Shown here one piece after another: positions 19,668 to 21,136 of a stretch of DNA of 21,136 bases (the first letter of the stretch is position 1; each line of letters starts with the position of its first letter). The stretch is from IMG/VR virus record IMGVR_UViG_3300037882_000592, positions 1-21,136 of that record. One strand, given 5' to 3'. The position numbers and the translations under genes are program-made. The DNA comes from a virus. The notes beneath the pieces are model-generated. The model searched no databases. It saw nothing but the letters and a program-made list of their open reading frames with translations, and had not been told where the DNA came from.

Positions 19668-20305
19668 TTTATGTTCTCCAAAAGTTGATGAATTGGTTTG
19701 AAACCGATTACGCCGCGAGCATCATTTGTGCCGTTTAGCCTTACCTGATTACATTTATCCTTATCACCGTACATCACTGGCTCTGGCGGCTTAATTCCTC
19801 GTTTTTCGTACATCACGCGATTTTGACCGCTTCCATTGATTCCGTCTAGCATTGGTGGGTAAGCCACAGCACCACGCCCGGCATAGCTTCGATAAGTCTC
19901 GCAAAATGTGTGCTGCGTGTAACTTAGCTTATCGGTCTCGGTTTGGCATATTTTTACCCAGCCGCCCATGTCACCGATTACCAAATGAATCAATCCATCA
20001 TCAAACACAATATCTTGATAAGCCCCTACAGCCCCCATGGCGGCGAAAACCTTACCCCAAGCCACCCTAGCCTTATCTGTGGTCGTTCCGCTTAATCCGC
20101 GCACTATATCGGCGACTTTAGGGGCAAATTGCCCGTTATCAGGATTCATGGCGTGGTTTTTCAGTGATTTTGCCACTTGTTCGTAGTCATAACCCTTCAA
20201 AGCCTCCCAAAAAATACCCATGGTGAATGTGGATAAGTCCTGCTTGTAATAATCCATAACGGACTGAAGAAGGTTGCGAAATTCTTTTTTGTCATTGTCT
20301 TTCAT
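19664..20305 (-). CDS. DUF6475-like replication-associated protein
   Basis: A 213-residue protein. The features I recognise as DUF6475 are: FWEALKGYDYEQVAKSLKNH near 38-57, MNPDNGQFAPKVADIVRGL (59-77), DKARVAWGKVFAAMGAVGAY (20 residues), then IVFDDGLIHLVIGDMGGW and FCETYRSYAGRG. In phages these proteins follow a DUF1376-type replication initiator and are thought to help load the host replicative helicase; that role is from gene context, not proof. The ATG at 20305 is chosen because AAAGGA lies six bases before it and ATGA overlaps the upstream stop; an earlier ATG at 20323 would contain that ribosome site in its coding part. No ATPase motif is present, so it is not a DnaC-like ATPase. Confidence 0.75.
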   Translation of the reverse strand: MKDNDKKEFRNLLQSVMDYYKQDLSTFTMGIFWEALKGYDYEQVAKSLKNHAMNPDNGQFAPKVADIVRGLSGTTTDKARVAWGKVFAAMGAVGAYQDIVFDDGLIHLVIGDMGGWVKICQTETDKLSYTQHTFCETYRSYAGRGAVAYPPMLDGINGSGQNRVMYEKRGIKPPEPVMYGDKDKCNQVRLNGTNDARGVIGFKPIHQLLENIK

Positions 20306-21003
20306 GTATTTTCCTTTAACCATTGGTCTGCTACCGCTTTATTTCTCGCCTCTAATGCCGTTTGTTTGTTTTCACCACGTACGCTTGATTCTTTTATCCA
20401 TTCAGCCTTAAAGCTCTTCCATCCGCGATTGCAAGCCATAACCAATGCAGCCTCTAGGCTTATCCCCGCTTTGTCCGCTTCGCCTTGTATGCCTTTTAAA
20501 GCCGTAGCCGTCAAAATTACTTTACGCTGTTTTTTAAAATCATCCCAAACCCCTTGGGAAACAGAATCAGGGCGCGTAAGCGCTGTATTCTTTATAACTG
20601 GGTTATGGGTTAATGGGTTATGGGTTATGGGTAGCATTGGTTTCGCATCGCTTTTAGGTGCGTTCGCATCTTTTTTTGATTCGTTCGCATTGCGTTCGCT
20701 ATCCCATCGCATTTTTGCTGACGCTCTAGCCTTCTCAGACTTTGCGTAAAAATCAGCAATAACCTTATCACACCTTGTATGAGTCCAGCCATTTTCTGAT
20801 TCTTTGAAAAAGTGTTTTAGAAGCGTTCGAACGGTTTTTTCATCCGAACGCACAGCAAACGCAATATCTTCGCATTCCCCTTTAAGGGGGGATTCGCCAA
20901 GATAGTATTTCCACATCATTCTTAGATATGTGGCTAAATGGTGGTCATCAAGGTTTGATGTATCCTTGATAAAATCACCTATGTGGTGTGTGTAGTAATG
21001 CAC
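20302..21003 (-). CDS. DUF1376 (YdaU-like) phage replication protein
   Basis: A 233-residue protein. The first 90 residues (HYYTHHIGDFIKDTSNLDD, then ATYLRMMWKYY and DEKTVRTLLKHFF) match DUF1376, a winged-helix-like domain at the start of many phage replication initiators. A charged linker (about 95-135) contains repeated N-A and THNP text written in repeated DNA. The C-terminal part (WDDFKKQRKVILTATALKGI; LEAALVMACNRGWKSF) is the helical domain often paired with it. It probably binds the phage origin and recruits the next protein. The start is GTG at 21003: GGAAGG stands eight bases ahead and the protein begins exactly where the domain does. A longer frame to 21084 would run through a terminator-like hairpin and is rejected. 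Confidence 0.8.
   Translation of the reverse strand: MHYYTHHIGDFIKDTSNLDDHHLATYLRMMWKYYLGESPLKGECEDIAFAVRSDEKTVRTLLKHFFKESENGWTHTRCDKVIADFYAKSEKARASAKMRWDSERNANESKKDANAPKSDAKPMLPITHNPLTHNPVIKNTALTRPDSVSQGVWDDFKKQRKVILTATALKGIQGEADKAGISLEAALVMACNRGWKSFKAEWIKESSVRGENKQTALEARNKAVADQWLKENT
20600..20700. repeat. Iteron-like direct repeats inside the replication gene
   Basis: Four consecutive copies of GGGTTAT or GGGTTAAT occupy 20600-20628 with a partial fifth after them. Next to them, at 20643-20700, a CGTTCGCAT-type word appears in variant form several times (minus strand GATGCGAA or TGCGAACG). They encode the linker of the DUF1376 protein. By analogy with lambda, whose origin iterons lie inside gene O, this could be the replication origin. 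That is inference. Confidence 0.4.
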
Positions 21004-21011
21004 ATCAACAA

Positions 21012-21017
21012 CCTTCC
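21012..21017 (-). promoter_or_regulatory. Ribosome binding site of the first replication gene
   Basis: GGAAGG on the minus strand stands eight bases before the GTG at 21003 and three bases after the T-run of the hairpin. It decides the GTG start. With flanking bases it reads TTGGAAGG, which can pair, with one bulged base, to CCTCCAA in the hairpin's linker. Confidence 0.7.
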
Positions 21018-21020
21018 AAT

Positions 21021-21100
21021 AAAAAAAGGTTTCTATTGCTATCGTCCAGCTTTTGACTGGTTGGAGGACTGTTAGGCACAGCACAATAGCAATAGAAACC
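21021..21100 (-). ncRNA. Structured leader RNA with terminator-like end (C4-like candidate)
   Basis: On the minus strand, a perfect 15-base-pair stem is formed by GGTTTCTATTGCTAT (21100-21086) and its complement (21042-21028), followed by seven T (21027-21021). The 43-base interior holds two small hairpins: CTGT-GCCTA-ACAG (21081-21069) and CCAGT-CAAAA-GCTGG (21060-21046, one U-G pair). They are joined by a single-stranded TCCTCCAA (21068-21061), an anti-Shine-Dalgarno sequence. The result is a three-way junction ending in an intrinsic-terminator tail, directly before the ribosome site of the replication gene. C4 antisense RNAs of P1/P7-like phages share this plan: a co-transcribed small RNA, just upstream of a regulated gene, with a segment complementary to its ribosome site. 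Whether this belongs to that family needs a covariance search. It could also be a simple attenuator. Confidence 0.6.
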
Positions 21101-21106
21101 CCGCCT

Positions 21107-21129
21107 AAATAAAAACGCCTCCAAGCGTT
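21107..21129 (-). terminator. Weak intrinsic terminator ahead of the leader RNA
   Basis: On the minus strand, AACGC-TTGGAG-GCGTT is a five-base-pair hairpin followed by TTTATTT. It would end transcripts of whatever gene lies beyond the right edge, or act as the first hairpin of the leader. Its loop region contains TTGGAGG (21124-21118), a perfect complement to CCTCCAA in the next hairpin. Confidence 0.5.
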
Positions 21130-21136
21130 ATGCCAA

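What the first reader, a model, noticed from the sequence alone, without database searches (positions are those of the whole stretch)
21021..21100. Three-way-junction RNA with an anti-Shine-Dalgarno linker directly upstream of the replication gene (C4-like layout)
Seen: a perfect 15-bp stem, two inner hairpins, a TCCTCCAA linker and a T7 tail, three bases before the GGAAGG ribosome site of the first replication gene. Known: phage C4 RNAs (P1/P7 immI) are made from the same transcript as their target, fold into a terminated structure and pair with the ribosome site of the downstream operon. Inference: this RNA may switch replication-protein synthesis on and off, by attenuation, by direct pairing with TTGGAAGG, or by action in trans on an incoming phage (immunity). 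Such control of a DUF1376 replication gene, rather than of an antirepressor, would be unusual.
Basis: partly seen in the sequence, partly recalled or inferred. Interest (0 to 1): 0.75.

Follow-up and report, generated by a model that had tools for sequence, protein, structure and literature searches.

The report
Self-terminating antisense RNA controlling phage replication
In front of a phage's replication gene lies a small folded RNA whose exposed bases match a site just upstream on its own transcript; dozens of other phages carry the same device with different matching codes, which suggests an uncatalogued RNA switch that lets a phage turn off its own or a rival phage's replication.

Summary
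The structure is real: minus strand 21102-21021, a three-way junction (z -6.2) ending in U7, directly before a DUF1376 replication gene. The linker CCTCCAA is complementary to TTGGAGG in a hairpin loop upstream (21124-21118), and the P2 loop GCCTAA to TTAGGC (21108-21103); neither tracks the ribosome site. I found 36 further IMG/VR members, plus out-of-sample hits in Pseudomonas phage AH02, Leptolyngbya phage Lbo-JY16 and two Manatee Spring genomes. Stems and both long-range pairings covary (0/500 shuffles); the loop pairing scores 5.69 against 3.54±0.20 with swapped partners. The architecture (a, b, then an RNA exposing b', a') is that of P1 C4 and P4 CI RNA, but Rfam C4 does not match, the spare hairpin is on the other side, no downstream target was found, and the RNA carries its own terminator. 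Nascent leaders mostly fold a:a'+b:b', which excludes the terminator stem. Best reading: an antisense attenuator; the mature RNA captures a/b on new transcripts, so the terminator forms and replication genes stay off (immunity or dosage control). P4 is a precedent for replication control. Members checked lack an integrase. No RNA has been measured; trans action is inferred.

The parts
21114..21129 (-). a-hairpin: AACGC 21129-21125 / GCGTT 21118-21114, displaying target site a
   Evidence: sequence; the stem covaries in 36 leaders, 95.8% paired, all 4 pairs counted have changes on both sides
21118..21124 (-). site a (TTGGAGG), complementary to the linker a'
   Evidence: exact complement; a:a' covaries across members: TTGGCGG, TTGGAGG, TTGACGG, TTGGTGG, TTGCAGG
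21103..21108 (-). site b (TTAGGC), complementary to the P2 loop b'
   Evidence: own 5.69 nt vs swapped 3.54 +/- 0.20 over 26 distinct combinations
21021..21102 (-). terminated RNA body: three-way junction P1-P2-P3 plus U7
   Evidence: z -6.2; covariation 0/500 shuffles; the window is one of the sequences of model R1
21083..21102 (-). P1 5' strand (closing stem, also terminator stem)
21026..21045 (-). P1 3' strand
21069..21081 (-). P2 hairpin, whose loop carries b' (GCCTAA 21077-21072)
21061..21068 (-). linker TCCTCCAA; a' = CCTCCAA 21067-21061
21046..21060 (-). P3 hairpin (spare hairpin, 3' of the linker)
21021..21027 (-). U-tract (intrinsic terminator with P1)
   Evidence: U-tract also directly after P1 in four members not used for the model
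21012..21017 (-). ribosome site GGAAGG of the DUF1376 gene
   Evidence: does not covary with the linker
20302..21003 (-). DUF1376 replication (primosomal-type) protein, 233 aa, GTG start
   Evidence: Pfam DUF1376 E 4e-15; PHROG primosomal protein E 3e-22

Best explanation
An antisense-RNA attenuator in the 5' leader of the phage early (replication) operon, built on the logic of C4/P4 CI RNA but of a distinct class. Transcription starts at or just before the a-hairpin. As the leader emerges, a and b can pair in cis with a' and b' (antiterminator); this uses the base of the P1 stem and delays it, so some polymerases read through into the replication genes. Transcripts that form P1-P2-P3 stop at the U-tract, and the released RNA shows b' (P2 loop) and a' (linker). 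When that RNA has accumulated it binds a and b of new transcripts in trans, from its own genome or from a co-infecting relative with the same code; the antiterminator is then blocked, the terminator forms and the replication operon stays off. Shown by sequence: anatomy, covariation of the stems and of a:a' and b:b', mutually exclusive predicted folds, promoter position, diversified codes. Inferred: that both folds form in cells, the direction of the switch, action in trans, and the role (immunity or dosage control).
For: Covariation of stems, a:a' and b:b' in 36 leaders: 28 of 42 pairs with changes on both sides, 0/500 shuffles; b:b' own vs swapped 5.69 vs 3.54 +/- 0.20. RNAalifold on the leaders prefers a:a'+b:b'; 26 of 37 prefixes ending at the linker fold that way and 37 of 37 full leaders fold P1; in the window both cis pairings hold from nt 71 to 92 and P1 takes over at nt 95, before the U-tract. 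A -10 box precedes 34 of 36 leaders. Codes change on a constant scaffold: L291 vs L020. Members not used for the model, in AH02, Lbo-JY16, MW202462 and MW202520, carry both complementarities and a U-tract. Precedent: P4 CI RNA stops P4 replication genes by termination (PMC4825925).
Against: No RNA or expression data. The full-length terminator is about 18 kcal/mol more stable than the forced antiterminator (-44.3 vs -26.0), so read-through needs kinetic trapping, which was not simulated. In 11 of 37 members the linker-length prefix does not fold with both cis pairings, and in AH02 that prefix is no more stable than shuffles. Covariation of a:a' and b:b' alone cannot tell cis from trans pairing.
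Confidence: 0.55

Rival explanations
1. Cis-only attenuator: the two exclusive folds form a timing or dosage switch (decided by polymerase speed, pausing or a protein), and the released RNA is inert.
For: The cis folds explain the covariation without trans action; the phages checked lack an integrase, so a lysogen that makes the RNA is not evident.
Against: A cis-only switch gives no reason to exchange a, b and their partners while P1 and nearly all of P3 stay the same (L291 vs L020). The terminated form leaves b' in a hairpin loop and a' in a linker, as in the trans-acting C4 and CI RNAs.
Confidence: 0.22
2. Trans activator, as reported for Gifsy-1 IsrK: the short terminated RNA binds the read-through transcript and raises expression of the downstream genes.
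For: IsrK is likewise a terminated short RNA with a read-through form from the same promoter (PMC4825925); an isrK-family match lies upstream of the P4 CI RNA.
Against: IsrK acts by opening a ribosome site; here the linker does not track the ribosome site. No isrK match in the new class.
Confidence: 0.08
3. One reading: the linker masks the Shine-Dalgarno of the replication gene (C4 a2/b2 type translational control).
For: TCCAA of the linker can pair with TTGGA of the window's ribosome site.
Against: No covariation of linker and ribosome site (3.92 vs 4.00 swapped); the same ATTGGA stands beside different linkers; no a..b site downstream of the RNA.
Confidence: 0.05
4. Canonical member of the C4 RNA family (RF01695).
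For: Same a, b, b', a' order and a displayed in a hairpin loop.
Against: No Rfam C4 match; model R1 does not match P1 or P4; spare hairpin on the other side of the linker; own terminator; no downstream target.
Confidence: 0.05
5. An ordinary intrinsic terminator or a chance hairpin without regulatory pairing.
For: P1 plus U7 is a textbook terminator.
Against: Conserved linker, P2 loop and upstream sites with compensating changes are not needed for a terminator; a promoter lies immediately upstream in nearly all members.
Confidence: 0.03

Closest known systems
Satellite phage P4 CI RNA (Rfam RF01695 C4; P4 immunity)
   Same: a (seqA) in a hairpin loop and b upstream, RNA exposing b' and a'; [quoted passage not shown]
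   Different: P4 RNA is processed from a longer transcript, matches Rfam C4, has its spare hairpin 5' of the b' hairpin, and also uses a downstream site seqC; the new class ends at its own U-tract, is not matched by Rfam C4 and has no downstream a..b site.
Phage P1 C4 antisense RNA with a1/b1 (RF01695, RF03163)
   Same: Order a1, b1, C4 with b' loop then a' linker; a1 in a hairpin loop; same promoter.
   Different: P1 C4 acts at a2/b2 at the icd/ant ribosome site (record annotation) and lacks a U-tract after its stem; order of inner hairpins differs.
Gifsy-1 IsrK (RF01394)
   Same: Short terminated RNA and a read-through mRNA from one promoter in a phage operon (PMC4825925).
   Different: IsrK activates translation; no Rfam isrK match and no ribosome-site link here.
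Plasmid pT181/pIP501-type antisense attenuators (from general knowledge)
   Same: Antisense RNA favours a terminator over an antiterminator in the leader of a replication gene.
   Different: There the antisense RNA comes from the opposite strand; here it would be the aborted form of the transcript that it regulates.

Membership tests
C4 antisense RNA (RF01695) | Match to the Rfam covariance model | tested here: not met
   No C4 hit in the window up to E 10, nor in 13 member loci up to E 0.5; P1 and P4 are hit as positive controls.
C4 antisense RNA (RF01695) | Long closing stem with two inner hairpins and one unpaired linker | tested here: met
   Fold and covariation.
C4 antisense RNA (RF01695) | Order: spare hairpin, b' hairpin, a' linker, closing strand | tested here: not met
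   Here b' hairpin, a' linker, spare hairpin.
C4 antisense RNA (RF01695) | Upstream a1 (in a hairpin loop) and b1 complementary to a' linker and b' loop | tested here: met
   compare P1 and P4.
C4 antisense RNA (RF01695) | Second target (a2/b2 or seqC) downstream of the RNA | tested here: not met
   No further a..b composite in the window or member loci, and linker does not track the ribosome site. A downstream site of one element only was not excluded.
C4 antisense RNA (RF01695) | Mature 3' end by processing, no intrinsic terminator at the closing stem | tested here: not met
   U-tract directly after P1 here; none after P1 C4.
C4 antisense RNA (RF01695) | Represses its target in trans | not testable with these tools
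   Needs reporter assays.
P4-type immunity (works like) | Antisense RNA in the leader of the replication operon | tested here: met
   DUF1376 directly downstream in the window; in about 13 of 37 members the first gene is DUF1376-like.
IsrK (RF01394) | Match to the Rfam model | tested here: not met
New terminator-tailed class (model R1) | R1 match, U-tract after P1, and a:a' plus b:b' complementarity in loci not used for the model | tested here: met
   AH02, MW202462 and MW202520 found with R1; Lbo-JY16 found by BLAST from AH02 and confirmed with R1; complementarities read from the sequences.

The most novel reading that the evidence does not exclude
A widespread RNA-only superinfection-immunity system of non-integrating, possibly obligately lytic phages: each phage makes a short self-terminated RNA that switches off the early operon of any co-infecting phage with the same a/b code, and the codes diversify under this pressure like immunity groups.
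Probability: 0.3. Interest if true: 0.9.

Novelty: new variant of a known kind. Interest (0 to 1): 0.78.

Why it matters
C4-type RNAs are best known from temperate enterobacterial phages. This class is not matched by any Rfam 15 family, occurs in dozens of environmental phages and in at least two cultured ones (Pseudomonas phage AH02, Leptolyngbya phage Lbo-JY16), stands before several different kinds of early genes, and merges antisense RNA and intrinsic terminator in one molecule. If right, it would show how phages without a recognisable integrase or repressor can limit or exclude replication, give readable codes that predict which phages interfere with each other, and offer a naturally diversified set of attenuators. 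A cultured phage and host make it directly testable.

Tried and rejected
Rfam C4 membership: no match. Linker-to-ribosome-site pairing: no covariation. A second a..b target elsewhere in the window or member loci: none. A genome-contig scan with the RNA core gave only hits without the structure, and R1 on 398 Pseudomonadota genomes found nothing (weak evidence, strict filters and no positive control). BLASTN of the RNAs of L217 and L291, and of the L259 locus, in the phage collection: no match. Plasmid search with the Lbo-JY16 RNA: none. Most hits of the loose patterns lack the structure and were discarded. A generic descriptor (stem plus bipartite complement) barely exceeded shuffled controls and was dropped as a discovery test. 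L199 passed the filters by chance and was excluded; L268 has no clear b and was left out of alignment A4. An open frame running through the leader (20302-21135) was set aside because DUF1376 relatives begin at the HYYTHHIGDF start.

Full report
OBSERVATION. The window is a whole IMG/VR virus record of 21,136 bases. Its genes run on the minus strand: DUF1376, DUF6475, terminase, portal, capsid and so on. The reported element is present at the stated coordinates, read on the minus strand: a perfect 15-bp core stem (18 bp with one G-U), two inner hairpins, an unpaired TCCTCCAA, a T7, then ATT and the ribosome site GGAAGG of a GTG-started DUF1376 gene. It folds at -37.1 kcal/mol, z -6.2 against dinucleotide shuffles. 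Rfam 15 gives no match at gathering scores, and at E up to 10 only chance hits.

Just upstream lie two sites. TTGGAGG (a, 21124-21118) sits in the loop of a small hairpin and is the exact complement of the linker (a'). TTAGGC (b, 21108-21103) abuts the main stem and is the complement of the P2 loop (b'). The composite a..b occurs in the window only there and as its own complement inside the RNA (0.03 expected by shuffling).

HOMOLOGUES. A DUF1376 relative at 87% identity (L002) has the same RNA with many paired changes in P1 and with a:a' and b:b' changed together. An RNA-core pattern found L018 and L020, and a survey of 80 DUF1376 upstream regions found L167 with a third code. The first genes downstream differ: DUF1376-like in about 13, otherwise small ORFs of the MLKFR type, MQVKNWAKFQHF-type proteins, ParB-like, HNH and others (names given here by inspection of the first residues). 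The leader is thus a module of early operons, not part of one gene.

STATISTICS. On 36 distinct leaders, 42 named pairs (a-hairpin, a:a', b:b', P1, P2, P3) are 91.5% paired; 28 pairs have changes on both sides, with 196 such cells against 53 +/- 7 in shuffles (0/500) and 20-53 in slid controls. b:b' was not used to select members: own complementarity 5.69 nt, partners swapped 3.54 +/- 0.20, none of 2000 permutations as high. Linker to upstream loop: 6.95 vs 4.88 +/- 0.19, partly by construction, since members were required to have a 6-nt upstream complement. Linker to ribosome site: 3.92 vs 4.00, i.e. no relation; most members were recruited with a fixed ATTGGA, but L002, L018, L020 and L167 were not, and they show the same. 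Among 106 pattern sites with enough upstream sequence, 36 have the exact upstream 6-mer; chance is about 1% per site. A -10 box with at most one mismatch precedes 34 of 36 leaders (6.8% of random windows), mostly 11-13 nt before a, so the transcript probably starts at the a-hairpin. In the window the contig ends 12 nt upstream of a, so its promoter is not visible.

TESTS OUTSIDE THE TRAINING SET. A covariance model (R1, with a:a' and b:b' left unpaired) gives nothing in P1, P4 or the classical C4-type leaders. It hits Pseudomonas phage AH02 at 29520-29632 (E 1.5e-14), MW202520 (E 4e-8, directly before DUF1376) and MW202462 (E 6.5e-15); 16 phage records other than P1 and P4 were tried this way. 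BLAST from AH02 gives Leptolyngbya phage Lbo-JY16, confirmed by R1 at 75.9 bits. Read by eye, all four carry the a-hairpin, a:a', b:b' (5-7 nt) and U-tract. In AH02 the RNA stands before gene 51, not before its DUF1376 gene. AH02 is described by its authors as lytic (PMC8567786). No Phage_integrase match was found in AH02, MW202520, the window or six member contigs of 35-39 kb, and Pfam scans of three of those contigs, partial for two, list no CI-type repressor.

MECHANISM. Without constraint RNAalifold chooses a:a' + b:b', extended into the first bases of P1, over P1 itself. In the window the growing leader has b:b' from about nt 59, both pairings from nt 71 to 92, and flips to P1 at nt 95, before the U-tract is made. 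In the set, 26 of 37 prefixes ending at the linker fold a:a'+b:b', and 37 of 37 full leaders fold P1. b abuts P1, so both folds can hardly coexist (inference). I infer an attenuator: cis pairing permits read-through; terminated RNA exposes a' and b'; in trans it occupies a and b of later transcripts, which then terminate. The full-length terminator is about 18 kcal/mol better than the forced antiterminator, so the outcome must be kinetic; this was not simulated. The trans step rests on analogy with C4 and P4 CI RNA and on exchange of codes on a constant scaffold: L291 and L020 share P1 and nearly P3 but differ in a, b and their partners. It has not been measured.

KNOWN SYSTEMS. P1 C4 and P4 CI RNA (both RF01695) share the order a, b, then b', a', with a in a hairpin loop. 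P4 CI RNA prevents expression of P4 replication genes by premature termination through seqA and seqC (PMC4825925), so the target operon is not unusual. Differences: no Rfam match, spare hairpin on the 3' side of the linker, no downstream a2/b2 or seqC found, and a U-tract as the RNA's own 3' end. I therefore do not file it as a C4 RNA but as a separate class that appears to work like one. Classical-order RNAs with a = GTGAGAA (as in P4) or GGTCAGAG also stand before DUF1376 genes (L128, L139, L163, L147), again without an Rfam match.

LIMITS. No expression data; predicted folds only; the member contigs are related and were recruited by pattern; hosts are unknown except for the cultured phages; immunity in particular is a hypothesis.

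Noticed in passing
L128, L139, L163 (within about 130 bp upstream of DUF1376), L147 about 905-1032: Classical-order C4/P4-CI-like leaders before DUF1376 genes: a = GTGAGAA (identical to the P4 site) or GGTCAGAG in a hairpin loop, with matching b/b'; not matched by Rfam C4.
   Followed up: partly
L113 1413-1481 and L180 1408-1484: Rfam int-alpA RNA (RF02996) immediately upstream of DUF1376 genes, another structured RNA in the same position.
   Followed up: no
L088 8692-8615 (-): Rfam isrK match upstream of the P4 CI RNA, spanning the GTGAGAA site, so that the isrK and a1/b1 elements may be the same leader feature.
   Followed up: no
L106 590-726: A close DUF1376 relative (68% identity) with nearly the same promoter as L020 but a different leader without this RNA, as if the cassette had been exchanged.
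   Followed up: no
Alignment A4, middle of P1: Most members keep one mismatch (A-C or C-C) at the same place in the long stem P1; the window subtype and L167 lack it.
   Followed up: no
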